Below are positions 5,326 through 54,063 of a stretch of DNA of 64,000 nucleotides, piece by piece (position 1 is the first letter of the stretch; each line of letters starts with the position of its first letter). The position numbers and the translations under genes are program-made. The stretch is from contig BPJP01000002.1 of NCBI GenBank assembly GCA_026004675.1, positions 310,001 to 374,000 of the forward strand, in the 5' to 3' direction. The notes under the pieces are model-generated. The model worked only from the letters and a program-made list of their open reading frames with translations. It was not told the DNA's origin and did no database searches. Origin of the DNA: Gemmatales bacterium (lineage in GTDB: Bacteria > Planctomycetota > Planctomycetia > Gemmatales > Gemmataceae).

Positions 5326-5351
5326 TGCGATTCTACCTCGCAATCGTTCGA

Positions 5352-6917: not shown

Positions 6918-7069
6918 GACCGTCTCGTCAAACCAAAGTAATGGCGATAGCAGGTTCATCCATTCTAGCGGAGCGAATGGCCGGGATGAAAAAAGATTTT
7001 GATTCCTGCGCACGCCAAGAGGTCAAGCAAACGGCGTTTGCAATCGGCTGCTGGCGGACGAGAGAGAGG

Positions 7070-9337: not shown

Positions 9338-9361
9338 AAGCTCTTCCTTGAGCCGAACCAT

Positions 9362-12096: not shown

Positions 12097-13077
12097 ATGC
12101 CGCACGGTGAATTCGGCATCTACCTGAGCGCGACGAGCACTCAGGAAATGCTTGTGGTTCTGGGAATGGCTTGGGCAATCGACTTGCTATTCGGCGAGCC
12201 ACCTTACTGGATGCATCCGGTGGTTTGGCTGGGAAGATCGGTCGACGCCGTTTTGGCTTGGGCACCGCGTAATGGTTGGTGGTCTCCGTTTCTCTTTGGG
12301 ATGGCTTTGACACTCGTAAGCTGTGCGGCTGTAGCATCGGCCAGTTGGCTCTTGCTTGCTTGGGCCGGGCGATGGACCGCCGTCCACTTGCTGATCTCGG
12401 TCTGGCTGTTGAAAGCAAGTTTCGCCTGTCGTGCGTTGCGTGATGCTGCAGACGATGTCGAAAACTGTTTGCAAAACGAGGACATCGAAGCGGCCCGGCA
12501 AGCATTGCGTTCCTTGTGCAGCCGGGATGCAAGTTCACTCGATGAGACCGAACTCCGCAGTGCTTCGATGCAATCGTTGGCTGAAAATTCATCCGACAGC
12601 ATCGTCGCACCGCTTTTGTATTACTCGTTTTTCGGCATCGCTGGCGCCGTTGTCTATCGTACGATCAACACGCTCGACGCCATGATCGGTTATCGCGGTC
12701 CGTACGAAGCACTGGGCAAATTCGCGGCGCGACTCGACGACGTGGCCAACTGGATTCCGGCCAGAGTGACGGCAGGGTTGATTCTCGCGGCCGCCTGGTT
12801 GTCGGGATTGGAAAGTCGCGTCGGCTGGGCCATTCTGTGCCGGGACGGAGGCAACACACCGAGTCCCAATGCAGGCAGACCCATGGCTGCACTGGCAGGA
12901 GTGCTTCGCGTCCAACTCGTCAAAAAAAACGCCTATCGTCTTGGCGATCCGGTTCGATCGATCGATTCGGACCGCTTTCGCCAATGCCGATCGTTGTGTG
13001 GGCTGGTCGCCTGGCTTTCCTTGTTGCTTGCCGCAACAGTTATCGTGCTGTCGCGTTCGTCTGTGCGCCTCGCGTAA
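12097..13077 (+). CDS. cobD: Adenosylcobinamide-phosphate synthase CobD/CbiB
   Basis: Membrane enzyme of cobalamin synthesis that attaches aminopropanol (or its phosphate) to adenosylcobyric acid; about 326 residues. The ATG at 12097 is preferred over the in-frame GTG at 12070 because AGAAAGG precedes it. Family motifs: LLFGEPPYWMHPVVWLGR near the N-terminus, NSSDSIVAPLLYYSFFGI, YRTINTLDAMIGYR and the C-terminal RDGGNTPSPNAGRPMAA. Four to five hydrophobic segments are visible. No other cobalamin genes are in the window, so the pathway is dispersed or salvage-only. Confidence 0.93.
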   Translation: MPHGEFGIYLSATSTQEMLVVLGMAWAIDLLFGEPPYWMHPVVWLGRSVDAVLAWAPRNGWWSPFLFGMALTLVSCAAVASASWLLLAWAGRWTAVHLLISVWLLKASFACRALRDAADDVENCLQNEDIEAARQALRSLCSRDASSLDETELRSASMQSLAENSSDSIVAPLLYYSFFGIAGAVVYRTINTLDAMIGYRGPYEALGKFAARLDDVANWIPARVTAGLILAAAWLSGLESRVGWAILCRDGGNTPSPNAGRPMAALAGVLRVQLVKKNAYRLGDPVRSIDSDRFRQCRSLCGLVAWLSLLLAATVIVLSRSSVRLA

Positions 13078-13145
13078 AACTTCCGGGTAGAATAGAAACA
13101 GCCCAAGACGGCAAGCCGGATGCGGCAAAGAGGAGATACCCATCG

Positions 13146-15011
13146 ATGTGGCGGACAGGTTGTTTGGTCGCGCTTTTCGTTTCACCGATACCACTATGTG
13201 CCGATTTGGCACCACAAGGCAAAATCCCCTATAACGTGCAAGTCGTTCTTCGCTTTGAATCGCACCCTGTGCTAACGAAATTGTTTCGGGACCGAGTCCG
13301 GCGGGAGTTGGCGGAACATCTCCGATTGGCATTGGGCAAATGGGGGCAGGTGGATGTCGTGGACAACCATGAGCATTGGCCGGAAATCCGCCAGCAAGGC
13401 TTGCCGAATCTCGGTTCGTGGAAAACGGTGGGCAATTTCAAGACCTATTTTCTCTTGATCGGATATGAGCGTGATCTTTATGTGATTCGATCGCGACAGT
13501 ATGACGGGTTGACAGCGTTTGCCGGTCCTTTGCGGCGTGTCGAAATTGCCGATCGTCTGCTCGTCTCCCGCAGGGCAACGCTGACGATTCAGCGTGATTT
13601 TGGGCTGGTTGGCACGGTCATGTCGCATGCCGATGGCATGGCCGATGTCGAGTTGAAAGCCGGTCAGCTGAACCGTTTTGACTCGCGTTGGTTGCAAAAG
13701 AACGACCTCTTTGCGGTCGTTCAAATTCGAAAAAGCGAAGAAAAAGAAACGGCCGAACCCGTTCCTTATTGTCTGCTTCAGGTAGAGCAGGTTTTTCCCG
13801 AGAAAGGAACTTGCCGGTGTCGGGTGTTGCAACGCTACCGTGACTCGCTGGGCGAAGCGCCCGGCCTCCTCGGGTTTCGTTGCATCAAGCTCGGCACGAT
13901 CCGCAATGCTGTCCGCCTTCGGCTCGTCGATGACCGGCTTCGTCCGCTGGCCGGTTTTCAGGTACTGTTTTTTCGCAGCAGTTTCGACGTCGAGCCGGTC
14001 GAAGAGACCACAACGGGAGCGAACGGCATGGCCTCGTCGACGAAGCGTTTCGACGGGTTGGTGCTGGTACAAGTGAAAAACGGTGGCGTGGTCTTGGCCC
14101 GTTTTCCCCTGGCGCTTGTGGATGGCGGACTGCATATTTGCCGAATTCGCGATCATCCGGAAGCAGAACAGCTTGGCCGGCTGGAACTGCAAAAAAAACA
14201 ATGGATCGCTCATCTCTATGAAAACGTGCTCGTGGTCAATGGACTTTACAAAGAACTGAGTCAACTTGTTGATGGCCAGAAGCACAAAGAGGCCTTGGCA
14301 CGGGCCGAAAGCGGCCTGGCCGAATTGAACCGCCAGATTGCCGGCAGAACCAAGGAACACGAGCGTCTTCAAGCGGCTGCCAAACAACTCGGGTTGTCAG
14401 CGCGCTTGGACTTGAGCGAAGGGTTCGATCGTCTTCGCGAACTGCAAAAACGGCGAACGGAGATCGAAGGATTTATCGCCAACCTGCGCGACGTCATCAA
14501 GCGGGAAAACGATCCGAAACGTGCGGAGTGGATCGCGTTGCTCGAAAAAGCCCGTCTGCTCGAGGCGGATGCGGAATACGACGAAGCGTTGAAGCTTTAT
14601 GAGAGGATTCAGCGGGAAGCCAGGGAGCATGCGGGCATCCTTGCCCAGGCGAAGAAGCGTTGGGCCGCCCTGGCCAATGCCTGGAACGCAAGAAACGAAG
14701 AACACCGTTCCGCCCGTCGTTTTATCTACGAGACATGGCGGACACTGAAGACCGCGGCGGAGTTGAACCAATATCTGGACCAGGCGAAGCAGATGTTCGA
14801 GATCTGTCGGCGGAACGACGACCGCTTGACCCCACGCATGCTGCTCCGCGCCAACCTGCGACACGCGGCCCGGCTGCAACAACGGCTGCAATCGCTTCGG
14901 CCACAGGACAACCAGGAGGATCGTCAGGAAGCCGAACAGATCGCTGCCGCCGCCGAAAAACTTGGCAAACTGACCTTGGCGGTGACCGAATTCTTGAAAG
15001 CCCCGAAATAG
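13146..15011 (+). CDS. Secreted coiled-coil protein of unknown function
   Basis: About 621 residues. The reading frame extends upstream into cobD, but the ATG at 13146 follows GAGGAGA and begins a signal peptide (MWRTGCLVALFVSPIPLCA), so it is taken as the start. The N-terminal half is beta-rich and includes a carboxypeptidase-regulatory-like stretch (RLVDDRLRPLAGFQVLFFR). The second half (about residues 330-620) is highly charged and heptad-like (LNRQIAGRTKEHERLQAAAKQ), consistent with a long coiled coil or TPR-like helices. No catalytic motif was recognised. It lies tail to tail with the sigma factor gene (9-bp gap). Confidence 0.75.
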   Translation: MWRTGCLVALFVSPIPLCADLAPQGKIPYNVQVVLRFESHPVLTKLFRDRVRRELAEHLRLALGKWGQVDVVDNHEHWPEIRQQGLPNLGSWKTVGNFKTYFLLIGYERDLYVIRSRQYDGLTAFAGPLRRVEIADRLLVSRRATLTIQRDFGLVGTVMSHADGMADVELKAGQLNRFDSRWLQKNDLFAVVQIRKSEEKETAEPVPYCLLQVEQVFPEKGTCRCRVLQRYRDSLGEAPGLLGFRCIKLGTIRNAVRLRLVDDRLRPLAGFQVLFFRSSFDVEPVEETTTGANGMASSTKRFDGLVLVQVKNGGVVLARFPLALVDGGLHICRIRDHPEAEQLGRLELQKKQWIAHLYENVLVVNGLYKELSQLVDGQKHKEALARAESGLAELNRQIAGRTKEHERLQAAAKQLGLSARLDLSEGFDRLRELQKRRTEIEGFIANLRDVIKRENDPKRAEWIALLEKARLLEADAEYDEALKLYERIQREAREHAGILAQAKKRWAALANAWNARNEEHRSARRFIYETWRTLKTAAELNQYLDQAKQMFEICRRNDDRLTPRMLLRANLRHAARLQQRLQSLRPQDNQEDRQEAEQIAAAAEKLGKLTLAVTEFLKAPK

Positions 15012-20519: not shown

Positions 20520-23500
20520 ATGCGATTCTTTGTTCGTTTTCTTGCCGCCGCGTTGGCGATCTTGCTTTCGACTGATGCTATCTCCGCACAAAAGTTCGAA
20601 CTGAAAAAGGGGGATCACATTTGCATTGTCGGCAACGCCCTCGCCGAACGAATGCAGTATTTCGGCTGGTTGGAAACCCATTTGCAGACGCGTTTCCCCA
20701 ATCATCAACTGGTTGTTCGCAACTTGGGATTCTCTGGCGACGAGATCAAGACCCGCTTGCGTTCGGCAAACTTCGGCAGCCCCGATGAATATCTGAAACT
20801 GCATCGTGCCGACGTCATCTTCGCATTCTTCGGCTTCAACGAATCCTTTGCCGGCAAGAACGGCGTCGAACAGTTCAAGAAAGATCTCACCGACTATATC
20901 GACCATGTGCGCAGTCAAAAGTACAACGGTTCCAACCCGCCCCGAGTCGTGCTTTTCTCGCCCGTCGCTCACGAAAACCTGCGGACAAAAGGCGTGCCTC
21001 CCTATCGCCTGCCATTGGCCAAGGGAGAAAAAGGGGGCTGGCCTGACTTGCCCGATGGCAGGGAAAACAACGAGCGCATCCGCCTCTACAGCGAAGCCAT
21101 GGCTGAGGTCGGCCAAGAAAATGAATATCGTTTTCGTCGATCTCTTCAACGCCAGCAAACGGCTTTACGACGAGTCCGACACACCCACTGACGATCAACG
21201 GCATTCACCTCAACAGCCATGGCGACCGCCTCATCGCCCAGGCTATCGACCAGGCGCTTTTCGAAACGTCGAACGATAAGCTCTCGGAAAAGCTGCGACA
21301 GGCTGTGCTGGATAAAGACTTCTACTGGTTCCACCGCTACCGCACGACCGATGGTTACAACGTCTATGGCGGCCGATCCAAGCTGAAATACACCGATGGA
21401 ATCAGCAATCGCGAAGTGCTCCAGCGCGAAATGGAAGTCCTGGAAGTCATGGCGGCCAACCGCGACCAACGCATTTGGGCCATCGCCCAGGGCAAAGACC
21501 TGAAAGTCGATGACAGCAACACTCCCCCCCTTCATTCCGGTCAAAACCAACAAACCCGGACCCGGTCCGGGGGGCACTCATCTATTTCTCGGAGGCAAAG
21601 AAGCCATCGACAAGATGAAGGTCGCCAAAGGCTTGAAGGTCACCCTGTTCGCCTCCGAAGAAATGTTTCCAGAGTTGATCAACCCTGTGCAGATGGCCTT
21701 CGACACCAAAGGCAGGTTGTGGGTCGCCGCCTGGGAATCGTATCCCCACTGGAAACCCAAAGAAGAAATGAACGACAAGCTACTGATTCTCGAAGACACC
21801 GACGGCGACGGCCAGGCCGATAAATGTACCACCTTCGCCTCCGGTCTGCACAACCCGACTGGCTTCGAGTTCTACGGCAACGGCGTTTTCGTCGCCATGG
21901 CTCCCAACCTCCTCTATTTGCAGGATACCGACGGTGACGACAAAGCCGATGTCAAGCGAATCGTGCTGCACGGCATCGATTCCGCCGACACGCACCATAC
22001 TGCCAACAGTTTCGTCTTCGGTCCAGGTGGAGCACTCTACTTCGGCGAGGGGGGTCTTTCACCAATCGCAGATTGAAACGATCTACGGGGTGATGCGAAA
22101 CAACAATGCCTGCGTCTGGCGGTTCGAGCCGCTCACCTGGAAAGTCGAACGGTTTCGTGCCTTTCAACTTCGCCAACCCGCATGGCCATGTGTTCGATCG
22201 CTGGGGCAACAATTTCATCCATGACGGCACGGGCGCGGTTCCCTATGACGCAGCCTTGTTTTCTGGGCATCTCGAGTACCCGGCCAAGCACCCCAAGCCG
22301 CCGCAACTTTATCAGCAGAAAACTCGTCCATGCCCGGCCACGGAAATTCTTTCCAGCGGCCATTTTCCCAAGGAGTACCAGGACAACTTGCTCGTTGCCA
22401 ACGTGATCGGCTTCCTGGGCATCCTGCGCTATCGCATCCATGAAGGACGGTTGCCAGTTTTCGCGCTGACCGAAGCCGAGCCGATCCTGCAATCCTCGGA
22501 CCCGAACTTCCGCCCCGTCGATATGGAGATCGGACCGGACGGCGCCTTGTATTTCACCGACTGGCAAAACCCCATAATCGGCCATATGCAACACCACATC
22601 CGCGATCCGAATCGCGATCGCAAACATGGACGGGTCTACCGCGTCACTTGCCTGGATCGACCGCTGCTCGAGCCAGCCAGGATCGCCGGCGAACCCATCG
22701 AAAAACTCGTCCAGTTGTTGCAGCATCCCGACAACCGGGTTCGCTACCGCGCTAAGCTCGAACTCAGCGGTCGCGATCGACACAAAGTCCTCGCCGCCGT
22801 CGACAAATGGCTCGCTTCGCTCGACAAGGGCAATCCCGACTACGAGCGTCTGATGCTCGAAGGTCTGTGGATGTACCAGTTCCACAACATTGTCAATGCC
22901 GACCTGCTTGAACGCGTACTCAAATCGAAAGACCACCGCGCCCGATCGGCGGCCACGCGCGTGCTCTGTTACTGGCGCGACCGGATTCCAGAGTCGCTCC
23001 AGTTGTTGAAGAAACTCGCTGCCGATCCGCATCCACGTGTTCGGCTGGAGGCGGTCCGCGCTGCCAGTTTCTTCCGCCGACCCGAAGCGATCGAGGTTCC
23101 CATCATCAGCATGGACTTGCCAAGCGATAAATACCTCGATTACACCCGGCAAGAGACGATGAAAGCTCTGGAGCCATATTGGAAAAAAGCCCTTTCTGAA
23201 GGAATCAACATCAAATTTACCAGTGATGCCGGACGCCGCTACTTCCTCCGCAACGTCCCGACCGACCAACTCTTGAAGATGAAACGCGATCGCGGCGTGT
23301 ATTTGGAGCTGCTCTACCGCGACGGCATCCGTGAGGAATACCGTCGGGAAGCCTTGGCCGGTCTCGCCAAACTCGACAAAAAAGATGAGCTGTCGGTTCT
23401 GCTGGGTGCCATCGCCAACCTCGACGTTCGCCAACAAGGGCAAGGCTCGGTGTTCGACCTGGTTCGTCTCTTGACCGCGCATGATCCCAAGGCATTGACG

Positions 23501-25501
23501 CGGGTTCGCAATGAATTGGTCAACATGGCGACCAACGGGAAGCTGCCGGTGGTTCGACAAATCGGGTTCGTCGCCCTGATCAGCGCCGATGCCAACGTCG
23601 ACAAGGCGTGGGACCTGGCTGCCGCCTCGGCAAAGAGGTTGCATGACCTGGTCAGTGCCATGCCGCTGATTCCCGACCCAAGCATCCGTGCCCAGCTTTA
23701 TCCGAAGGTAGCCGCTCTCTTGGACGGATTGCCTGACCAATTGAAACCCAAGCCTGGCACGTCCGCGGGTACGACCGGTCGCTTTATCCGCATCGAACTG
23801 CCCGGGCGGAAAAGGGTGCTCACATTGGCCGAAGTCGAAGTCTATAGCAATGGCCGAAACATCGCCAGGCAGGGAAAGGCCACCCAAAAGAACGTCGATC
23901 ACGGCGGCGTTGCCGAACGAGCCATCGACGGCAACAAAGATGGCCGCTATGCCTCTGGCGGGCAGACGCACACCAAAGTCACTGCCAATCCGTGGTGGCA
24001 ACTCGACTTGGGGAACGAATATCCCATCGACGCTGTTGTCATCTACAACCGCACTGATGGCAGCCTGGGCAACCGTCTCGATGGGTTTACCCTCAAGATT
24101 CTCGACCGTGCCAACAAGCCCGTTTTTGTCAAGGAAAACAACCCTGCGCCAAAGCCGAGCGTGACGTTGCAGATCGGCGGCGCCGGCCCGGAAGCCATGA
24201 TCCGCAGCGCGGCCATGCTTGCCCTGACCTATGTTCGGGGCAAAGAGACGGACACCTTCAAATTGCTGGCCAGGCTCGTGGCAGAAGATAAGGACAGGTC
24301 GGCTGCCGTCAGGGCCTTGCAACGCATTCCCCGAAAGTTCTGGCCGAACGACCAGGTCAAGCCGCTGGTCGATTCCTTGTTGGCCTATATTCGCAAATTG
24401 CCGAAGGAAGAGCGCACTTCTCAGCAAGCCCGCGATGCCCTGCAGCTTGGCTATGCCCTGGCGGCAGCTCTGCCGGCGGATATCGGCAAAGACATCCGCG
24501 CTGAGTTGGGAGAACTAGGTGTCCGCATCATCCACATGGGCACCCTGCCTCACCGCATGGCCTATGACCGCGAACGCCTCGTCGTTCAGGCAGGGCGTGC
24601 GGTTGAAATCCACTTTGAAAACTCCGACTTGATGCCGCACAACCTGGTGATCGTGCAACCGGGCGCCTTGGAAGAAATCGGCCTTCTCGCCGAAAAAACC
24701 GCTCAAGACCCCGATGCCGCCAACCGGCAATACGTGCCAAAATCGAAGAAAGTCCTTGTTGCCAGCCGCTTGTTGATGCCGAGGGATTCGCAGCGAATCC
24801 TTTTCACCGCACCGAAAACACCCGGCGTCTATCCCATCGTTTGCACGTATCCTGGACATTGGCGGCGCATGTACGCGGCTTTGTACGTCGTCGACAACCT
24901 CGAAGAATATCTCGCTGATCCCGAAGGATATGTCGCCCGGAAGAAACTTCCAATCCAGGATGAAATGCTCAAATTCAACCGCCCGCGAAAAGAATGGAAA
25001 TTCGAAGAACTCGCGTCTTCCATCATCAACATGAAACACGGGCGATCGTATGCCAACGGCAAACGCATGTTCGTCGTTGCAGGCTGCGTCTCCTGCCACC
25101 GCGTCGACAATGTCGGCAACCAATTCGGTGCCGACCTGACCAAAATCGATCCGATGCTCAAACCGGTCGACATCCTCCGCGATATCCTCGAACCCTCTTC
25201 GAGGATCAATGAAAAGTATCAGTCGTACATCATCGAAACCACGGCTGGAAAAGTGATCACCGGCCTGATCATCGAAGAAACAAAGGAAGTAGTCAAGATC
25301 ATCGAAAATCCATTGGCAAGTACGAAACCGGTCGTGTTGAAGCCGTCCGAAATTGCCGAACGGCAAAAGTCGTCCGTTTCCTTGATGCCCAAGGGACTGC
25401 TCGACCGCTTGACAAGGGAAGAAATTCTCGACCTCGTCGCCTATGTCATTGCCAAAGGAGACCCGAAACATCCCTACTTCAAAGGAGGGCACGAGCATTG
25501 A
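20520..25501 (+). pseudogene. Giant GDSL/dehydrogenase/HEAT/F5-8C/cupredoxin/cytochrome c protein, five frameshifts
   Basis: One gene of about 1,660 codons split over six phase segments. The start ATG (20520) opens a signal peptide (MRFFVRFLAAALAILLS). Order: GDSL/SGNH domain (VGNALAERM, GFNESF, LNSHGDRL), beta-propeller of the PVC membrane-bound-dehydrogenase type (EDTDGDGQADK, NFANPHGHVFDRWG), HEAT repeats, F5/8-type C domain (about 23780-24170), cupredoxin (about 24500-24910, with copper ligands in MPHNLVI and CTYPGHWRRM), and C-terminal cytochrome c with CVSCH near 25085. Shifts lie near 21105, 21180, 21515, 22050 and 22155. Each is cured by removing one base, mostly from G, C or T runs. 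The long tail from 22160 is intact. Either consensus errors or a recent pseudogene; domain conservation favours the first. Confidence 0.8.
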
Positions 25502-45411: not shown

Positions 45412-48400
45412 TTACGCTTCGATTCGCCGTGGCTCGCCGTGTTCCGTTACCGCATCTTCCTTTTTCAACGTCGCCGTAAAAGCCGGAACCGTTTCGAACA
45501 AGTCGCCAACGACAGGAAAAACTCGCGGTCTGGCTCGCCGTTGGTTCAGCGTCATGATCGGCGCGTCGGGGTCGCGATTGAAAGCGAGAATCGTTGCCCG
45601 GTCGCCGATGTAGTTGAGGTGCTGCGGCGCGCCGCTGATCCCGATCGCCAACAAGATGCGTGGATTGACCGACACGCCCGATTGCCCGATTTGTTTGTCG
45701 GCGGGCAACAAACGGAGTTCTTCGGTGACTTTGCGCGTGCCGCCGACCATGACAGGAATACCCAATTCGGTTAGCGTGGCCAGCAGCGGTTCGACGACAG
45801 CTTCGTAACCGTCGCGGTTGCCGACGCCAAAGCCCACATCGACGATGAATTCGGCATCGGATAGCCTCGCGACGCCGGCTGCTTCTTTCACTTCTTCGAG
45901 CAACTGCACCATGTCGTCGCGGTGATAAAAGCGCTCGAGCCTAGGGGACCAGCGCTGCACTGGCTCGCCCAGGGCGCGTTCCACGCCCCAGTCGGCTTCG
46001 ACTTCGGCGTCGGCGGAAAGGCATAGCCAGTAGTGGGCTTGCTGATGCGGCGAGAGGATTTGCCGCACGCGGACCTTGGACCCGAAGCGTTCGGTTTCCA
46101 CGAAGAAATTGTCGGAAGAGGTGACTCCTTCTCGTCCCATGCGGCGAATTTTCGTGACGACTACATTGGCAGTATTGACGGATGCGGCCAGCGATGCCAG
46201 AACCGGCTCGGTCCATGCCTCCCCGATACACGCGTAAGGAGGCTCCGAGAAAAGAGAGGCCAAACATTCCTGCAAGAGCTTCTGTCGAACGGCCAGTTGC
46301 TGTTTCGCAAACGGGGACACGAGAAGAATCGTCTCCCCTTGATGCCAGTCAGCAAGCTGTCCCAAGGCTGCTTTCTGGCTGGCTTCGTCGTCGCCAGCCA
46401 AGACCAGAACGGAAAAGCGCGAGTGGCGGATGCTGGCCAAAAGCTGCGTCGCCCGAATCACGGCGCCCGCATGTTGACCAAGCCGGCCATCCACCGCAGC
46501 GACGATGGCGAGCAGATCGGTCGACAGGGTGGGACTCGCGACGTCGGCAATCTGCCCGGCAAACACCTTCTTTTCAGCAGCCGAACCCGTTTCAGCAAGC
46601 CCGAGAGCCCTCAGAAGCCGGTGCGCTGCGTCGGCAGGCGACACCGCGCCTGGCGCTTCGTCGATCTGTTTTTCATCTTGGAGGGCGACGGCAGTCAGTT
46701 GAACTTTGCGTGCGGGAATCCGCCTCGGCCAGCGTTGCAATTCGACCGCGCGTGCCAGTCCTGTCAAAAACCCGTCGATCGTAAACGGCCTAAGCGCCAG
46801 TTGCGGTTCGATGGTGACCGCTGCCGGCAGCGAACGGTAGCGACATCGGCCGTCGGCATCGAACAGATGCAGGGTGTCGTCGTCCAGGGTCGTCCGCACA
46901 CCGCTCCCCGCGTAGGGAATTTTCAGTGCTGCTGACGTCAGCAATGTCAGCGCCCCTTCTTCGTCACTGCCGGTTCCGTGCCCGCCCAGAATCAAATCGT
47001 ACGGATCGTTGGCTCGCAAGGTGGCGGACAATGCCGAGGCCGCGCTATCCATGCTGACTGTCTCATCTTCCGTAGCAACCAACCATACGCGACCGACTTC
47101 ATAGCTGAGCAGACGGCCCAAGCTGGCCGCGTAGCGTTTGGGGCCGACGGCAATGACATCGACCGAAAGTTTGTCGCCGCCCGTCTCACGCAGCGACAAG
47201 GCCGCTTGCAGCGCCGACTGGCTGGAAGGACTAAGCGTCAAGTAGGGTTCCGCCAGTCTGCCATCCACGACAGCAAGAGCGGGGATATTGGGAGGAGTCA
47301 GTTCGACGATGACGAGAACGCGAATGGGCCGCGCCAAAGGCAAACGAGCCGGCGTCGGTTCCGCAGTGGTGACCGCTTCGGATTGGTGAAACAAGAGCGA
47401 TGCCGCCCGAATCTCCGGCGCGTAAAAGCCGCGTCGAAGGTGGGTCAGTTCTTCGTCAAAGCGATGCAACCGATTGCGAACTTCCGTCAAACAGCGAACA
47501 AGGGCGTTTCGTCCGATTTCAAGTTTCTGCAAATCGACGGCTCCTTCTCCCCCGCTTTGTTCGTAGCGTTCCAGCCACGCCAGTCGGGCAAGAGTGCTAT
47601 CCGCGGCTTTGAACCAGGCCACTGCTTCCGACAGCAGGAAACAATTCGCTTGCAGGTTCGGATTCTGCCATAATCCCTGGCCGAAGACTTGCAACGCGGA
47701 CTCGATCCGTTGTCGCAATTCCTGCTTCATGTTCGCCAAAGCCAGCGCGGGCCTGCTTACGTAGGACGGCGTCGTTTCCGGGGAGTTGGACCAGCGCTTG
47801 GCGATCTCGGTTGCCAGGTCTTTGAGAATGAAGAACCGTTGGATTTCGTTCGTCCCTTCGTAAATATTCAGGACGCGAGCGTCGCGTTTCCGCTTTTCCA
47901 CGAAATGCAACTGCGTCTGCCCTTCCAAACCGTGGATGTCTTCGGCCAATTCGATGACTTCATGCAAGAGTTCACTGACCAGCATTTTGGCAATGGCCGA
48001 CTCCATGCGCACGGACCTGGTCTGCGGATGTTCGAACCGGCCTACCGTTTCGTGGGCAAGAGCCTCCGAGATGAAGCGATCCATCCGCATGCGTTCGATC
48101 CGCCAGCGAACCCATGCGGGCAGGGTATCTCCATGCTTTTTGCGCGCTATGGCAAGGCAATCGTCGATCAAGCCGCCCATTTGCGTCATGGCGGACATGG
48201 CGAGTCCGGCCCGGCCGACATTCAGCGTTTCCAAAGCATTGACCTGCCCGCGCGCTTCAAGCCCGATCATGTTCTCCCGAGGGACACGGACCGCCTGCAA
48301 GGATAATTCGTTCGTCGGTGAGCCATTCTGCCCCATCTTCTCTTCGTCCTTGCCGACAACCAGTCCCTCGGCATGGCGGTCGACGATGAACCCTGTCACT

Positions 48401-51400
48401 CCGCTGACCCAGCGATAATGTTCCGGGTCGTCGATTTTGGCATAGAGGCACATGATGCCGGCCATTCGGCCATTGGTAATCCACATTTTCGCGCCGGTCA
48501 GTTCCCAGTAGTCATAGAAAAGCTGGCCATCGCGCTGGCGAAGGAAGGCGATATCGGTGAAGTCGACTCGCCGGCTGCCATGCATGTAATAACGCATCCG
48601 CGACGGATCATCCGTTTCATAGTCGTAGTCGTCGAAGCGGATGGGAGTCGGTTCGTCGTTTTCCGACCAGCGGTAATGGGCAACATTGTCCCGAAAGACC
48701 AGCTTGCTGGCGTCGAGCAGATAGCGAGGCTCCTTGCCGCCGTGCGGAACGAAGCGCAATACGCCGTCCGGTTCCATTTCGACCGGCACGCTGCGCAGGC
48801 GTGCTCGCGTCGCCACTCGTGCCGTATCCGAACCGGCGGACGGCTCTGTCAGAGCAAAGGCGGAGATTTGCCCCGCACTGACCCAACGCAAAAAGAGATC
48901 GCACGCTTGCATCCGCAACGGTAATTCGTCCAGCAACTCCCTGGCGATGCGGCACGCCTGCTGCCAATGGTTTGACGCTTCTTGCAAGGATTCGGCCATC
49001 CTGCCGAAATCGACAGCGAGACCGGACTGGCCCGCTTCTTGCCAACTCGCCAAGAACCGTTGGCACAGAACCCGCAACACCGTCTTGTTCAGGAGATTCT
49101 CCTGCAAGACTTTTTGCAGCTTGCGATAGGCCTGCTCGATGGTCGACGCTTCGACCCTGCGCTCCAGGTACGAGCGCAATGATTCCAGGCGGGACTGAAT
49201 GTCGCGCTGGAGAGAGGAATTCGCTACGAAGGCGGACAAGTCTTTTTGCGCTTGGGGCAAATCCTTGTCGCGAGCCAGCAAAACAGGAGTGGTGCCGATG
49301 CTGGTATTGACTTGAATCGTCAAGGAAATCGCGATATCTGCCAGTCGTTGGGCGGCGGTTGTCAGGAAATAATAATCCACTTTGGGCCGACCTTCGCCAC
49401 CCAGGTCTTTGGGAATCATCAAGCGGAAATAGCCGTTCTTTCGACAGAACTCGAGATCAGCGTCGGAAGGCCGGTGGTTTTTTTCCACGAACCGTTCATA
49501 AGAGACCAAGACTCCGCTGCCCGGCAACGGTCGCGGCGTGCCGAAGTAGCCGGCGATCCGACTGCGGAACTCTTCGTGCCGCTTTCGCAACTCCTCATCC
49601 GTGTCGACGAACTCGGGAAAATAGCGGGGATGGATCAGGTCGATCGGCCTGGTCAGAAAATCGCCCGAATCGTAGGGACAGTCCGATTCGAGATACTCGG
49701 CATAAGTGATTGGCGGTGGCCCGGCGTTTGGTTCGACAATCGGCCGATCGTCACGGAGTTCATCGGGATGGAGGCACCATTGCACTTGAGCGAGGAAGGT
49801 TTCCATCGCAGAGGCGACGGCATCGAGCCAGACGCGCAAAAGGGCCGTCTCGACCTCGGCATCCCAGCCATATTCCAAGCGTGCGTGTGTTCGCAAAAGC
49901 AGGGCTTTGCTGACAAGCAAGAACGCATCCTGGCGAGCGAAATTCTCCACGACCTCGGCGATGGTGTTGCCCGTCGGAGAGAGGTCGGCAAGCTTGTTTC
50001 CCGCTTCGCGCAACCGGCCTCGCAAATTGCGAATCTCGTCCAATTCCGCTTGTAACGCCTTGCGCTGCACGAGCTGCTCGAACAAATCCGCTTCGCCGGC
50101 AATGACGGCAAGACGCTGCCCTTCTGGCCGCCATTGCTGCAGCAATTGCTGGCCATGCCGACGCAGGACATCGGCGTTATCCGAACCGAGATACCGCCAG
50201 GCGGCGGCGTCGCGGTAGAACTTCGACAGGATGTCGTCCTCTGAATACCCCGTGCCGCCGAAAACTTGCACCGCATTGTAGACCACGCTGCCCGGCGCGG
50301 TGCCCAGCGCTTCCGCTACCACCGTCTTGACCAGTTCCGCGTGCTCCAGAGTTTGGGCCGAAAAATCCATCGGCGACAGCGTGTGATCGAGCGTTTCGAT
50401 CAGGTAGCGACGGGCTGCGATCTCGGCGACCATCTTCTTGACGGCGCCGAACTTGCCGATACTGTCGCGAGCTTCCTCGTCGTGAAACAATCCGGGAAAC
50501 TGGACTCGCTGGCCGGAATGTTCCACTGCACGACGGCTCAACAATTCCGCCATGCCGTTGGCAATCGACGTCAGATCGGCCGAGCTGATGATGCGCCAGA
50601 TGCGCAGGTAACGGTCGCGATCGACGGTTTGTTGCATCGATGCCAGATCGGGGAGATGGAGTCGAAGCCTGGCTAGTCCCGCCCCGCGCAATCCCAAGGT
50701 TGGAAGCGGCTCGACTGCCACACCGTCATGACCGGGTTCGACGAGCAACAGGCGATCCCCAACCAATATCAAAAGCCGATGGGCATGCGCCGCCGGGGCG
50801 AAAATTGCTTCCGCGAACGACGGATCGTCACCAGTTACGTCAGCGACAGCAAAACATGCCCATTCCTCAGCTCGCGTCCACTGTTCGCTTTGGGCATGGA
50901 AGGCAGGGGTCAAAGTGGCAAGATCGCGAGCCCAGAGGTGCGTGGCCGCCCGATAAGCCAGCGATGGGTCCTGCTTCGCCAGCAGCGCGAGCAACAATTT
51001 GCGGATGGGAGGATGCAGAGTCGAGGCAAAATCGTCGAGGTTCAATCGGGGAATGCAGGCGAGCAAATCGCGGATCAGCGCGTCTTGCTCGTGGGACAGC
51101 GGCTCTCCTTTTTCGAGGTGACGCCAGGCGCCCAGGGGGAAAGCCTCGTCGAGTTTCTCAGCCCATTCGTTCCTCTTGGCGGCCAGGCGTTTTCCGTCCT
51201 CCTCGGCGCGTAGCCAGGGCGCCGAAAGCCGTGTCGGGAGTTCCGGCAAAAAGCCCAACCGGTCGTCTTGCTTCGACTGGAGGACGTGCATCAGTTTGCG
51301 GAGGCCGACGACGTGGTGGAAACGAATCTGCCTGCCGTCAGCAGCCGCCCACGCATACTTTCTGTCCCACGTTCGGCGAGCGCGTTCTTCGGCTTTGTTG

Positions 51401-53925
51401 AACAGACTGGTAGCCAGGTCGACAATCTGCTGTCTGGCTTCTTTTCGGGCCGGATGATCCAGCCATTCGCAATCCCGCAGCTCCTCTACGATGCGGGCAG
51501 CGATTTGCTGAGCATAGCGGGCCATCATCTCCAAATACTCTGCTCGCGCGTTGTCGATATGTCGCGGTTCTTCCGCCAGAGCCTCGTCGAAAGCGCGCAG
51601 TTTTCTTTCAAGCTGATCGAGCAGACGGTGGATGATTGCCACAAACTCGAATTCCTGGCCATTGGTGGCGTGCATCGGATCGCCTGGCAGCCGACTGGCG
51701 AAGACCCGCACGGCTGCCTCCCAACGATCGACGACAAAAGGCAGAGCGGGACGACAAGCGACGGACTCGGCTAGTTGCGCCAACAGCCGGCTCACAACCG
51801 GTGAATGCACCGGATAGATGAAGCGATGCGCCCCATCGCGTGCCCACGAAACGATGTCACTCGTCCGCCAGCAGGTTTCGCATTTAATGCAATTCTCGAA
51901 ATTAACAACGACTTGGAGTTGCTGGTTGGCATTGATGCGTGCTTCGTAAACGTGGGCCGGGCAGACGTGCCAGACGCCTTGTTTGACCACGTCATTCTTC
52001 TGAGCCAACGATAAAGGCCAGTGGAGATGAATGTGCGATTGCTTGACGGTGAAATAAGCGAGGTTGGCAAGCTGGCTTTCCCAATTCTGCCCTGCCGAAG
52101 CCAACAGCGGCGTCAAATCGGTGGTCTGACGGACGGCAGCCGCGTACCGCGGATATAAAGCACGCGAAGGGCCGCCTCGAAGCACCGACTGCCAGCGCTT
52201 GCGGCACCAATCCCATCCGATGAGCATCCCTGCCGTGGTGACGGCAGCCAGGGCGACGCAACCGCTCCACACAACGTCCAGCATGTTGACCTGTTTTGTG
52301 AACAGGCGAAACGCACTGGGTATTTTCTCGGGCAAAGGCTTCTGGTCGTTGGCATACATGCGGCGCATGGCAGCGCTGAGGATGGGCTGAAAGCGACGGA
52401 ACCAGCGCAAGAGCGCACGTGGCGGTCTCCCCATGATTTCCGCGCCGGCGACATAATAGTGCAACTGCGCGTTGCCCGCCTTGGGGACATTGGCTCTGGG
52501 TCGGCCAAACAGGTCCCGCAGAGCGTTGACCGTCCCATCCAGGAGCAACCGACCAAGCGACGGGCGGTCGGCTACATCGCGCAGCCTCAGCGCCCGCACC
52601 AAATGACGCACGTCACGCTGCATCTCCGACCACTGGCCGGGGCTGGCTGCGTCCAGAATCAATCGCAGCCAATTGATCCACTTCGTCGTCAACCAGCGAT
52701 TCGGGCTCGTCCAGACGTAGGCCGAGCCGAGAACCAGATCGAGATTCTTGCCAAAGAAAAAGGACGTACGCTTGACATAGTTCGGCCAGCTGCGAAGAAA
52801 ATCGACATCCTGCCAATAGTGGCTTTTTTGCAGTGGCCGCAGGTAATGTTCCTGCAATTCTTCTTTGGAATAGCGGCCGTTCCGGCCCCGTATCGTCCGG
52901 GCAGCCTGGCTGATGAGCCAACCCATGTAGGTTGCCGGCCCCGTAAAGTTCGGATAGGGAAAATCAGTACCAATCGCGCTGGCCCCGCCGCCGATCGCCA
53001 AACCATCATCGATAAGGTAGGGAACGTCGCGAATCCCTCCGCCGCGGATGATCTTGGCGCCGAAGACTCCACGCCTGGCCCCCTTCAACCAGGGCTGAAG
53101 CGCTGGCAAACTTAAAAACCACTCCATCAGCAAATGCGGATCGCCTCGGAAATGTTCGTGCAAGTTGTCCGCCGGCACAACCAGGCCAAGGGACAGGCTT
53201 TGGCGGTTGGTGTAAAGGAATCCCCCCATATTCAACTGTATCTGCCGACCGCGAAGCGTCGCATTGCGAACCAGCAATTCGTAGGCAATCCCCTCTTCCG
53301 CGCCGACGCCAAAGATTTCCTCGATAGCGCCGTCGGGCATATGCATCACTTGCTTGATGCCCTGAAGAAACTTCGGTGCGTCGCGCTGATCCGTATAGCG
53401 CTCGTACCCCTCGCGCGTCACCAGATGGGATGCGTCGCCTTCCGCCAGAAAGACGAGGTCGGCGTACAACGGGCCGCGATTGGTGCACACACCGACGACC
53501 CGGCCGTCTTCCCGGATCAGGCTTTCCACAGTCGTATCGCTAAGCACAGCGGCGCCATACCTGGCGGCAAGATGCATGAGGTGTTGATCGTAGATCGGCC
53601 GCAATACCGTGTAGCAATGGCGAAAGGCTGGCGCATCGCGGTAGGTCATTCCCAACAGTCCGTGACCGTCCGTCCCGAAAAAGCCCCGCTCGACCAGTCT
53701 CCTTTCCCAGGCCAGCGCCTCGACTCCTTCTGGACCAAGGATTTCCGGCCTGGCCAGGTTTTCGGTGAAGTAGACGCATCCGGACCAGTTCTCCGCGCCT
53801 GCAAACGGTGCCGCTTCCACTACGACCGTGGCGAAACCCGCCCGAGCCAAACCGATCGCTGCCGTCGCCCCAGCAGCACCCCCGCCGACGATGATGACGT
53901 CGAATTGCGTATTGGATGGACTCAT
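45412..53925 (-). CDS. Giant fusion: ETF-QO/FixC - ferredoxin - two acyl-CoA dehydrogenase units - ETF-beta - ETF-alpha
   Basis: One frame of 2,837 codons. AAGGAG 6 nt before the ATG at 53925 sets the start; an in-frame ATG at 53940 exists. N to C: FAD-binding ETF-quinone oxidoreductase/FixC (VIIVGGGAAGATAAIGLARAG; about 1-550), hydrophobic helix (about 550-572), FixX-type 4Fe-4S ferredoxin (Cys about 655, 679, 682, 685; ENCIKCETCW), a helical region, acyl-CoA dehydrogenase-like unit 1 (about 865-1255; FGGTGYSEDDILSKFYRDAAAWRY but no catalytic YEGT), a helical region, acyl-CoA dehydrogenase 2 (about 1425-2045; FALTEPSAGSD, WELTGAKMWITNG, NIYEGTNEIQRF, Glu near 2023), ETF-beta (about 2198-2420; LILGGHGTGSDEEG), ETF-alpha (about 2460-2830; KQIGQSGVSVNP, AIGISGAPQHL, NRDPDAPI). 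All cofactor motifs seem intact except unit 1. Inferred path: acyl-CoA to dehydrogenase to ETF to quinone in one chain. Possible operon with genes to its right. Confidence 0.9.
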   Translation of the reverse strand: MSPSNTQFDVIIVGGGAAGATAAIGLARAGFATVVVEAAPFAGAENWSGCVYFTENLARPEILGPEGVEALAWERRLVERGFFGTDGHGLLGMTYRDAPAFRHCYTVLRPIYDQHLMHLAARYGAAVLSDTTVESLIREDGRVVGVCTNRGPLYADLVFLAEGDASHLVTREGYERYTDQRDAPKFLQGIKQVMHMPDGAIEEIFGVGAEEGIAYELLVRNATLRGRQIQLNMGGFLYTNRQSLSLGLVVPADNLHEHFRGDPHLLMEWFLSLPALQPWLKGARRGVFGAKIIRGGGIRDVPYLIDDGLAIGGGASAIGTDFPYPNFTGPATYMGWLISQAARTIRGRNGRYSKEELQEHYLRPLQKSHYWQDVDFLRSWPNYVKRTSFFFGKNLDLVLGSAYVWTSPNRWLTTKWINWLRLILDAASPGQWSEMQRDVRHLVRALRLRDVADRPSLGRLLLDGTVNALRDLFGRPRANVPKAGNAQLHYYVAGAEIMGRPPRALLRWFRRFQPILSAAMRRMYANDQKPLPEKIPSAFRLFTKQVNMLDVVWSGCVALAAVTTAGMLIGWDWCRKRWQSVLRGGPSRALYPRYAAAVRQTTDLTPLLASAGQNWESQLANLAYFTVKQSHIHLHWPLSLAQKNDVVKQGVWHVCPAHVYEARINANQQLQVVVNFENCIKCETCWRTSDIVSWARDGAHRFIYPVHSPVVSRLLAQLAESVACRPALPFVVDRWEAAVRVFASRLPGDPMHATNGQEFEFVAIIHRLLDQLERKLRAFDEALAEEPRHIDNARAEYLEMMARYAQQIAARIVEELRDCEWLDHPARKEARQQIVDLATSLFNKAEERARRTWDRKYAWAAADGRQIRFHHVVGLRKLMHVLQSKQDDRLGFLPELPTRLSAPWLRAEEDGKRLAAKRNEWAEKLDEAFPLGAWRHLEKGEPLSHEQDALIRDLLACIPRLNLDDFASTLHPPIRKLLLALLAKQDPSLAYRAATHLWARDLATLTPAFHAQSEQWTRAEEWACFAVADVTGDDPSFAEAIFAPAAHAHRLLILVGDRLLLVEPGHDGVAVEPLPTLGLRGAGLARLRLHLPDLASMQQTVDRDRYLRIWRIISSADLTSIANGMAELLSRRAVEHSGQRVQFPGLFHDEEARDSIGKFGAVKKMVAEIAARRYLIETLDHTLSPMDFSAQTLEHAELVKTVVAEALGTAPGSVVYNAVQVFGGTGYSEDDILSKFYRDAAAWRYLGSDNADVLRRHGQQLLQQWRPEGQRLAVIAGEADLFEQLVQRKALQAELDEIRNLRGRLREAGNKLADLSPTGNTIAEVVENFARQDAFLLVSKALLLRTHARLEYGWDAEVETALLRVWLDAVASAMETFLAQVQWCLHPDELRDDRPIVEPNAGPPPITYAEYLESDCPYDSGDFLTRPIDLIHPRYFPEFVDTDEELRKRHEEFRSRIAGYFGTPRPLPGSGVLVSYERFVEKNHRPSDADLEFCRKNGYFRLMIPKDLGGEGRPKVDYYFLTTAAQRLADIAISLTIQVNTSIGTTPVLLARDKDLPQAQKDLSAFVANSSLQRDIQSRLESLRSYLERRVEASTIEQAYRKLQKVLQENLLNKTVLRVLCQRFLASWQEAGQSGLAVDFGRMAESLQEASNHWQQACRIARELLDELPLRMQACDLFLRWVSAGQISAFALTEPSAGSDTARVATRARLRSVPVEMEPDGVLRFVPHGGKEPRYLLDASKLVFRDNVAHYRWSENDEPTPIRFDDYDYETDDPSRMRYYMHGSRRVDFTDIAFLRQRDGQLFYDYWELTGAKMWITNGRMAGIMCLYAKIDDPEHYRWVSGVTGFIVDRHAEGLVVGKDEEKMGQNGSPTNELSLQAVRVPRENMIGLEARGQVNALETLNVGRAGLAMSAMTQMGGLIDDCLAIARKKHGDTLPAWVRWRIERMRMDRFISEALAHETVGRFEHPQTRSVRMESAIAKMLVSELLHEVIELAEDIHGLEGQTQLHFVEKRKRDARVLNIYEGTNEIQRFFILKDLATEIAKRWSNSPETTPSYVSRPALALANMKQELRQRIESALQVFGQGLWQNPNLQANCFLLSEAVAWFKAADSTLARLAWLERYEQSGGEGAVDLQKLEIGRNALVRCLTEVRNRLHRFDEELTHLRRGFYAPEIRAASLLFHQSEAVTTAEPTPARLPLARPIRVLVIVELTPPNIPALAVVDGRLAEPYLTLSPSSQSALQAALSLRETGGDKLSVDVIAVGPKRYAASLGRLLSYEVGRVWLVATEDETVSMDSAASALSATLRANDPYDLILGGHGTGSDEEGALTLLTSAALKIPYAGSGVRTTLDDDTLHLFDADGRCRYRSLPAAVTIEPQLALRPFTIDGFLTGLARAVELQRWPRRIPARKVQLTAVALQDEKQIDEAPGAVSPADAAHRLLRALGLAETGSAAEKKVFAGQIADVASPTLSTDLLAIVAAVDGRLGQHAGAVIRATQLLASIRHSRFSVLVLAGDDEASQKAALGQLADWHQGETILLVSPFAKQQLAVRQKLLQECLASLFSEPPYACIGEAWTEPVLASLAASVNTANVVVTKIRRMGREGVTSSDNFFVETERFGSKVRVRQILSPHQQAHYWLCLSADAEVEADWGVERALGEPVQRWSPRLERFYHRDDMVQLLEEVKEAAGVARLSDAEFIVDVGFGVGNRDGYEAVVEPLLATLTELGIPVMVGGTRKVTEELRLLPADKQIGQSGVSVNPRILLAIGISGAPQHLNYIGDRATILAFNRDPDAPIMTLNQRRARPRVFPVVGDLFETVPAFTATLKKEDAVTEHGEPRRIEA

Positions 53926-54063
53926 CCGTTCTCCTTGCATGAAGCCAACAGCCCGGCACCATTATAACGATGTGCCGTTTCGCCGCGAGGCAGATGTGAC
54001 TGCCTGCTTTTGAAATGCGCTTTTGTCTCTTCCACCGTTCCGTATGCCGATTCGCGGAAGCCG

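What the first reader, a model, noticed from the sequence alone, without database searches (positions are those of the whole stretch)
45412..53925. Single-chain acyl-CoA-to-quinone electron transfer machine
One open frame of about 2,837 codons encodes, in order, FixC/ETF-QO, a membrane-helix-like segment, a FixX ferredoxin, two acyl-CoA-dehydrogenase units, ETF-beta and ETF-alpha. These are normally five or more separate proteins (acyl-CoA dehydrogenase, EtfAB, ETF-QO, or the FixABCX complex). Cofactor motifs for the FAD, 4Fe-4S cluster, acyl-CoA dehydrogenase FAD and ETF FAD/AMP sites are recognisable. I know of no experimentally described protein with this full set. Channelling electrons without diffusing ETF, or FixABCX-type bifurcation driven by acyl-CoA, are inferences.
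Basis: partly seen in the sequence, partly recalled or inferred. Interest (0 to 1): 0.95.

Follow-up and report, generated by a model that had tools for sequence, protein, structure and literature searches.

The report
Single-chain fatty-acid-to-quinone electron machine
One bacterial gene encodes a single 2,842-residue protein that fuses parts which cells usually keep as five or more separate proteins for the first oxidation of fatty acids, and this chain is predicted to pass the electrons along itself from the fatty acid to the membrane quinone; the same fusion recurs in genomes labelled as six bacterial phyla.

Summary
One intact frame, on the MINUS strand (45412-53940, 2842 aa), carries in order a FixC-like flavoprotein, a hydrophobic segment, a one-cluster 4Fe-4S domain, two acyl-CoA-dehydrogenase (ACAD) units, ETF-beta and ETF-alpha. 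It is not a join artefact: 119 other homologues of 2,587-2,967 aa were listed (51-59% identity), and 30 of 52 related loci carry it as one closed frame, in genome records labelled as six phyla. Unit 2 keeps the catalytic glutamate but has lost the motifs that hold the ADP end of the partner's FAD; unit 1 keeps those motifs and has lost the glutamate. They look like halves of one pseudo-heterodimer with one active site per chain. FadA and FadB lie in the same locus in 17 of 30 full-length loci, and in 13 of 16 genomes tested the fusion holds the only ETF-alpha domain found. Bifurcation is unlikely: two published FixABCX motifs occur in 0 of 158 sequences (154 reach the ETF region) and only one cluster motif is present. 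Best reading: a self-contained acyl-CoA:quinone oxidoreductase of beta-oxidation. Activity is untested.

The parts
45412..53940 (-). whole fusion gene, 2842 aa (alternative start five codons downstream, 2837 aa)
   Evidence: length of database copy P0002
52756..53907 (-). FixC/ETF-QO-like FAD domain, residues 12-395
   Evidence: Pfam; NCBIfam PRK10015 and PRK10157 FixC, below cut-off; closest solved chain of this part 7koe_C (T. maritima FixC); G19, G21, G24 in all and E42 in 33 of 34 distinct rows with letters there
52216..52284 (-). hydrophobic segment, residues 553-575, possible membrane anchor
   Evidence: best 19-residue hydropathy 0.42-2.75 in the rows that cover it and -0.44 in one partial row (L061); not shown to be in the membrane
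51841..52023 (-). 4Fe-4S domain, residues 640-700, one four-Cys motif C660, C684, C687, C690
   Evidence: Pfam; aligns to ETF-QO 2gmh (E 0.14) and to 7koe_D (E 2.5), both weak by themselves; Cys conserved 38/38, 37/38, 38/38, 37/37 distinct rows
51016..51840 (-). helical linker, residues 701-975, no Pfam family
49681..51015 (-). ACAD unit 1, residues 976-1420, non-catalytic partner half
   Evidence: 50191-50556; profile match to solved ACADs; two-unit model pLDDT 90.3
50497..50508 (-). unit 1 motif R1145-x-Q1147-F1148, read as FAD-ADP donor
   Evidence: 38/38 distinct rows; aligned to RVQF of 1buc and 4n5f
50254..50268 (-). unit 1 motif Q1225-x-F-G-G1229, read as FAD-ADP donor
   Evidence: 38/38 distinct rows; aligned to QIFGG of 1buc
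47371..49680 (-). ACAD unit 2, residues 1421-2190, VLCAD/FadE-like, catalytic, with a ~110-residue insert after residue 1560
   Evidence: Pfam
47857..47859 (-). catalytic glutamate E2028 in YEGTNE
   Evidence: 38/38 distinct rows
46666..47328 (-). ETF-beta domain, residues 2205-2425
45871..46665 (-). ETF-alpha domain I, residues 2426-2690, poorly conserved
   Evidence: fold
45415..45870 (-). ETF-alpha domain II, FAD-binding, residues 2691-2842
   Evidence: Pfam ETF_alpha; R2736, QIGQSG, SGAPQH, N2788, D2790 conserved

Best explanation
This 2,842-residue chain is predicted to be a self-contained acyl-CoA:quinone oxidoreductase, in which one acyl-CoA dehydrogenase site, a built-in electron-transfer flavoprotein and a FixC/iron-sulfur quinone reductase would pass electrons along one polypeptide. 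Likely route (inferred): acyl-CoA is oxidised at the FAD of ACAD unit 2 with E2028 as base; ACAD unit 1 does no chemistry and supplies the residues that hold the ADP end of that FAD, so the two units form a pseudo-heterodimer inside the chain with one active site; the ETF-alpha FAD domain takes the electrons one at a time and swings to the 4Fe-4S cluster; the cluster reduces the FixC FAD, which reduces membrane quinone. The enoyl-CoA product would go to FadB and FadA, encoded nearby in many relatives. Shown: the frame, domains, motifs, their conservation, gene neighbours and the scarcity of other ETFs in the genomes tested. Inferred: activity, cofactor occupancy, electron path, membrane contact, the geometry between modules.
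For: Domains over Pfam cut-offs. Same full chain in 30 of 52 related loci; 16 more are cut by contig ends, 4 are interrupted or split, 2 are not true relatives. Catalytic E2028 38/38; donor motifs R1145, Q1147, Q1225, G1228, G1229 38/38; cluster Cys 38/38, 37/38, 38/38, 37/37; ETF-alpha FAD residues 34-36 of 34-37 distinct rows. In the printed alignment of unit 2 to VLCAD, RTQF is faced by unrelated letters, the next ten residues by a gap, and QIMGG by EILGP; unit 1 keeps both motifs. This is the split described for the alpha and beta subunits of alpha2beta2 ACADs (PMC11153573, passages). Two-unit model pLDDT 90.3, pTM 0.91; unit 2 matches VLCAD and bacillar FadE chains over 502-524 residues. 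FadA and FadB in the same locus in 17 of 30 full-length loci, FadD too in 16. Strong 3HCDH_N match in 16 of 16 genomes that carry the fusion, 7 of 14 controls. Only ETF_alpha found in 13 of 16 genomes. A natural variant in G017 keeps FixC, cluster and linkers but lacks both ACAD cores and the ETF; a Desantisbacteria contig encodes FixC, FixX and unit 1 as three adjacent genes in the same order.
Against: No activity or cofactor data. Among ten ORFs next to it in the window none is FadA, FadB or FadD; FadB and thiolases lie elsewhere in the genome. Co-location is 15 of 15 in Pseudomonadota but only 2 of 6 in Planctomycetota and 0 of 9 in the other full-length loci. ETF-beta and ETF-alpha domain I are poorly conserved and the residues at the place of the beta AMP loop are not kept, so ETF behaviour may be altered. 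Hydropathy of the putative anchor varies widely. Three of 16 genomes also have a free ETF-alpha. The model cannot show electron flow between modules; no model longer than 1200 residues could be made. hhalign between units 1 and 2 was weak (probability 5%).
Confidence: 0.77

Rival explanations
1. The ETF unit also, or mainly, serves as electron acceptor for other, free acyl-CoA dehydrogenases of the cell, so the giant chain is a docking hub and not a closed channel.
For: It holds the only ETF match in the own genome, which has four other loci with ACAD C-terminal domains.
Against: The ETF is fused to its own ACAD. Many relatives show ACAD-like matches although 49 of 59 have no ETF_alpha match, so such ACADs may not need an ETF. 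The recalled recognition loop of ETF-beta does not look conserved (judged by eye).
Confidence: 0.13
2. A FixABCX-type electron-bifurcating enzyme driven by acyl-CoA or NADH, reducing ferredoxin and quinone.
For: FixC domain closest to T. maritima FixC; the domain set resembles EtfABCX.
Against: RPXFGG and GXXSPTXV, group-2 motifs quoted in PMC10734219, occur in 0 of 158 sequences, of which 154 reach the ETF region; one cluster motif against two in EtfX; ETF-beta loop not conserved. The third motif, RXGV, is too short to tell: it occurs somewhere in 126 of 158 chains.
Confidence: 0.04
3. The long frame is translated but cut into separate proteins, so in the cell it works as an ordinary set of subunits.
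For: One relative encodes three of the parts as separate genes.
Against: Closed frame kept in 30 full-length loci; linkers are partly conserved.
Confidence: 0.05

Closest known systems
Mitochondrial/aerobic chain VLCAD - ETF - ETF-QO
   Same: Same kinds of parts: VLCAD-like catalytic unit, ETF with alpha FAD domain, FAD plus one 4Fe-4S quinone reductase
   Different: All in one chain; FAD domain closer to FixC than to ETF-QO; dehydrogenase pair turned into unequal halves
FixABCX / EtfABCX (T. maritima, PDB 7KOE)
   Same: FixC is the closest solved relative of the N-terminal domain; ETF plus FixC plus iron-sulfur part
   Different: Two bifurcation motifs absent, one cluster instead of two; carries its own dehydrogenase; single chain
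alpha2beta2 acyl-CoA dehydrogenases ChsE4-ChsE5 (FadE26-FadE27), ChsE1-ChsE2
   Same: One unit carries the catalytic glutamate, the other the FAD-ADP contacts (PMC11153573 passages; here)
   Different: Both units in one chain, catalytic base at the YEG position, VLCAD-like rather than steroid type; oligomer unknown
Bcd-EtfAB and CarCDE complexes
   Same: ACAD working with EtfAB in one assembly (PDB titles 5ol2, 6fah)
   Different: Separate subunits, NADH-driven and bifurcating (passages of PMC5861303); no FixC or quinone part

Membership tests
Electron transfer flavoprotein (EtfAB) | ETF-alpha FAD-binding domain with conserved FAD contacts | tested here: met
   PF00766 56.5 bits, cut-off 27; R2736 35/35, G2752 36/36, H2774 36/36, N2788 35/35
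Electron transfer flavoprotein (EtfAB) | beta and alpha folds both present | tested here: met
Electron transfer flavoprotein (EtfAB) | separate alpha/beta heterodimer | tested here: not met
   one frame
Electron transfer flavoprotein (EtfAB) | AMP bound in ETF-beta | tested here: inconclusive
   residues 2321-2330, the place recalled as the AMP loop, are not conserved; binding not testable
Acyl-CoA dehydrogenase | unit 2: FAD domain and catalytic Glu | tested here: met
   PF02770, PF00441; E2028 38/38
Acyl-CoA dehydrogenase | unit 1: catalytic Glu at YEG | tested here: not met
   no YEG in the unit 1 stretch of any of 39 distinct rows, 38 with letters there; a base at another position was not tested
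alpha2beta2 heteromeric ACAD | catalytic base on one unit, FAD-ADP contacts on the other | tested here: met
   motif partition by sequence; the contact itself was not measured
alpha2beta2 heteromeric ACAD | two genes, heterotetramer | tested here: not met
   one gene; oligomer not testable
ETF-QO | FAD domain plus one four-Cys 4Fe-4S domain | tested here: met
ETF-QO | quinone reduction | not testable with these tools
   needs enzyme
FixABCX bifurcating group 2 ETF | motifs RPXFGG and GXXSPTXV | tested here: not met
   0 of 158, 154 of them reach the ETF region; motifs from PMC10734219 passages
FixABCX bifurcating group 2 ETF | two 4Fe-4S clusters in FixX/EtfX | tested here: not met
   one four-Cys motif; two stated in PMC6085437 and PMC10734219 (passages)

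The most novel reading that the evidence does not exclude
A new class of respiratory enzyme: a whole acyl-CoA-to-quinone electron chain in one polypeptide, with a dehydrogenase dimer collapsed into a one-site pseudo-heterodimer and an ETF that never leaves its partners; it carries beta-oxidation electrons in members of at least six phyla, mostly in genomes without any other ETF, so that one gene would give a lineage ETF-dependent fat oxidation.
Probability: 0.6. Interest if true: 0.86.

Novelty: new variant of a known kind. Interest (0 to 1): 0.78.

Why it matters
ETF is the classic mobile shuttle: it has to find many dehydrogenases and one quinone reductase by diffusion. A chain in which donor, shuttle and acceptor are tied together at 1:1:1 would make recognition and domain swinging directly testable in one molecule by structure and single-turnover kinetics. 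It also suggests how an operon of interacting parts became one gene, with an unfused relative and a natural deletion form for comparison, and how several poorly known soil and groundwater lineages could run beta-oxidation without separate ETF genes.

Tried and rejected
Join artefact: rejected, same chain in many separate genome records. Bifurcation: made unlikely by motifs. Two active ACADs: rejected. Plasmid and phage collections: no record covers 80% of the query, only scattered domain matches, so no sign of mobile carriage there. hhalign of unit 1 against unit 2 gave only probability 5%; the identity of unit 1 as an ACAD rests. A search with the unfused Desantisbacteria FixX found only itself (1 protein, 54 candidates), so the unfused form looks rare. 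Model coordinates are not in the Python box, so the distance from the unit 1 motifs to the unit 2 FAD site could not be measured. Families not listed are not thereby excluded.

Literature: ten searches, of which I saw the listings only (titles and starts of abstracts; some searches listed 12 of 33, 10 of 32 and 12 of 203 papers); no listing named a fusion of this kind. Passages (not whole texts) were read in PMC9973337, PMC6085437, PMC11153573, PMC6678751, PMC10734219, PMC2702500, PMC5861303 and PMC4324140; the fusions they mention are others (Nfn, Hdr, CarE). Only open-licence papers are held, so this is not proof of absence.

The 158 sequences are 120 proteins plus 38 loci; three are duplicates (L038=P0089, L039=P0028, L043=P0116) and four loci (L040, L042, L047, L078) do not span the ETF region. 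Two listed proteins, P0051 and P0117, show no GxGxxG-type motif near the N-terminus. L052 contains a masked stretch. Alignment A4 used 28 of 34 listed slices; A5 and A6 20 of 26. The tree used 35 rows; partial rows were left out; L057 and L046 have long branches.

Full report
What is there. The frame runs on the minus strand, 45412-53940, 2842 aa. The plus strand is not open. NCBIfam's best models for the N-terminus are PRK10015 and PRK10157 (FixC) and for the dehydrogenase FadE and acryloyl-CoA reductase, all far below their cut-offs. The solved chains closest by sequence are T. maritima FixC 7koe_C for the N-terminus and CarC, VLCAD and butyryl-CoA dehydrogenase for the second dehydrogenase.

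It is not an artefact. A database search scored 427 proteins at E <= 0.001; of the 120 listed, one is the window's own and 119 are others of 2,587-2,967 aa at 51-59% identity; for three of them (P0107, P0111, P0120) the best single local alignment covers only 55-56%, for the rest 90% or more. A scan of species genomes gave 52 loci: 30 have one closed frame of 2,271-2,902 aa (stop to stop) over nearly the whole query, 16 are cut by contig ends, 4 are interrupted or split (L056, L061, L062, L063) and 2 are not real relatives (L087, L089). By record title the 30 full-length ones are Planctomycetota, Armatimonadota, Verrucomicrobiota, Lentisphaerota, Nitrospirota and Pseudomonadota; they are metagenome-assembled or uncultured genomes, so labels may err. 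A tree of 35 rows groups Pseudomonadota, Nitrospirota and the PVC-plus-Armatimonadota rows apart (quick method, midpoint root), which fits a fusion kept within groups rather than recent spread. It is patchy: among 59 near relatives, own genome included, 8 have it (G012 and G042 on broken contigs) and one, G017, has a shortened form; in an even draw of 392 genomes of the phylum 8 have it, own included.

The two dehydrogenase units are complementary halves. In unit 2, YEGTNE with E2028, TEPSAGSD and KMWITNG are kept (E2028 38/38, S1704 39/39, W1820 39/39). In its printed alignment to human VLCAD 3b96, RTQF is faced by unrelated letters, the ten residues after it by a gap, and QIMGG by a consensus EILGP. 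In unit 1 the reverse holds: R1145, Q1147, F1148, Q1225, G1228 and G1229 are 38/38 and align with RVQF and QIFGG of butyryl-CoA dehydrogenase 1buc, but no row has YEG there, and in the Pseudomonadota the beta-domain of unit 1 is largely gone (read by eye). The passages read in PMC11153573 say that ACAD FAD sits at the dimer interface and that in alpha2beta2 ACADs one subunit holds the isoalloxazine and the catalytic glutamate while the other contacts the ADP-ribose. The division here is the same by motif, inside one chain. The two-unit model has pLDDT 90.3 and pTM 0.91 over 1,196 residues, and unit 2 matches VLCAD, ACAD9 and bacillar FadE chains over 502-524 residues, their C-terminal part included. 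I could not measure the contact in the model.

The quinone side has one cluster motif. C660, C684, C687 and C690 are conserved 38/38, 37/38, 38/38 and 37/37, and align with ETF-QO 2gmh (weak alone). EtfX has two clusters according to PMC10734219 (passages). Two motifs that paper gives for bifurcating group-2 ETFs, RPXFGG and GXXSPTXV, occur in 0 of 158 sequences, 154 of which reach the ETF region. A hydrophobic stretch before the cluster domain could anchor the chain, but it is variable.

Neighbourhood and genome context point to beta-oxidation. In 17 of 30 full-length loci thiolase (FadA) and the hydratase/3-hydroxyacyl-CoA dehydrogenase (FadB) lie in the fetched locus (flanks up to 10 kb), with an acyl-CoA synthetase (FadD) in 16 of these: 15 of 15 Pseudomonadota, 2 of 6 Planctomycetota and 0 of 9 others; L038 has no flank and L052 and L041 little on one side; in L043 two other frames lie between; the truncated Nitrospirota locus L053 also has FadA and FadB. 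The hits rest on BLAST with L039 and L070 queries at 100 bits or more, so diverged copies could be missed. Pfam checks of ten neighbours in L054, L064, L046 and L057 gave nothing of the pathway. In the window the neighbours include ScpB, an M50 peptidase and an ABC transporter, but the genome has a 768-aa FadB-like frame and three thiolases elsewhere. All 16 fusion-bearing genomes tested have a 3HCDH_N match at E <= 1e-20, against 7 of 14 control genomes (in G444 the frame is only 330 aa, so not a full FadB). ETF_alpha is found only inside the fusion in 13 of the 16 (own genome; 12 of 15 others; G446, G450 and G453 have a free one as well); these genomes may be incomplete. Among 59 relatives 10 have any ETF_alpha match and 7 of those are the fusion. 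The Fer4_ETF_QO profile finds the fusion's domain in 12 of 16 genomes; in G453 it finds only a free 95-aa protein and in G449, G452 and G454 nothing at E <= 0.01.

Evolution. On a Desantisbacteria contig FixC (529 aa), FixX (220 aa) and unit 1 (cut by the contig end) are three adjacent genes in the same order, the last two overlapping; unit 2 and the ETF are beyond the contig. In relative G017 a 1,329-aa form beside FadB keeps FixC, the cluster cysteines and linkers but lacks the dehydrogenase cores and the ETF, and that genome has no ETF match.

Verdict. Domains, order, conservation and context are shown. That the chain moves electrons from acyl-CoA through its own ETF to quinone is inferred from families and context; I put it at 0.77. 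No paper in the listings of the ten searches describes it.

Noticed in passing
relatives G001-G058: Most near relatives have a thiolase match (54 of 59) and many have FadB-like and ACAD-like matches, but 49 of 59 have no ETF_alpha match. What accepts electrons from their ACADs is unclear.
   Followed up: partly
L094 (G017:C7:17000-29000), 3916-7902: A 1,329-aa shortened form of the fusion with FixC, cluster cysteines and linkers but no ACAD cores or ETF, next to FadB.
   Followed up: partly
L062 11081-11083, L056 ~12414-12847, L061 ~12502-13528: Three Nitrospirota copies have an interrupted frame (in-frame stop or frame change); error, decay or real split not decided.
   Followed up: no
window 22106-25501 +: 1,131-aa protein with DUF7133, HEAT, F5/8 type C, copper-binding and cytochrome c matches.
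   Followed up: no
window 7070-9361 -: Protein kinase domain fused to WD40 repeats.
   Followed up: no
window 3817-5343 -: Multihaem cytochrome-like protein (Cytochrome_C554/C7 matches).
   Followed up: no
G238:C74 and G238:C45: One planctomycete genome seems to carry two copies of the fusion, the second cut by the contig end.
   Followed up: partly
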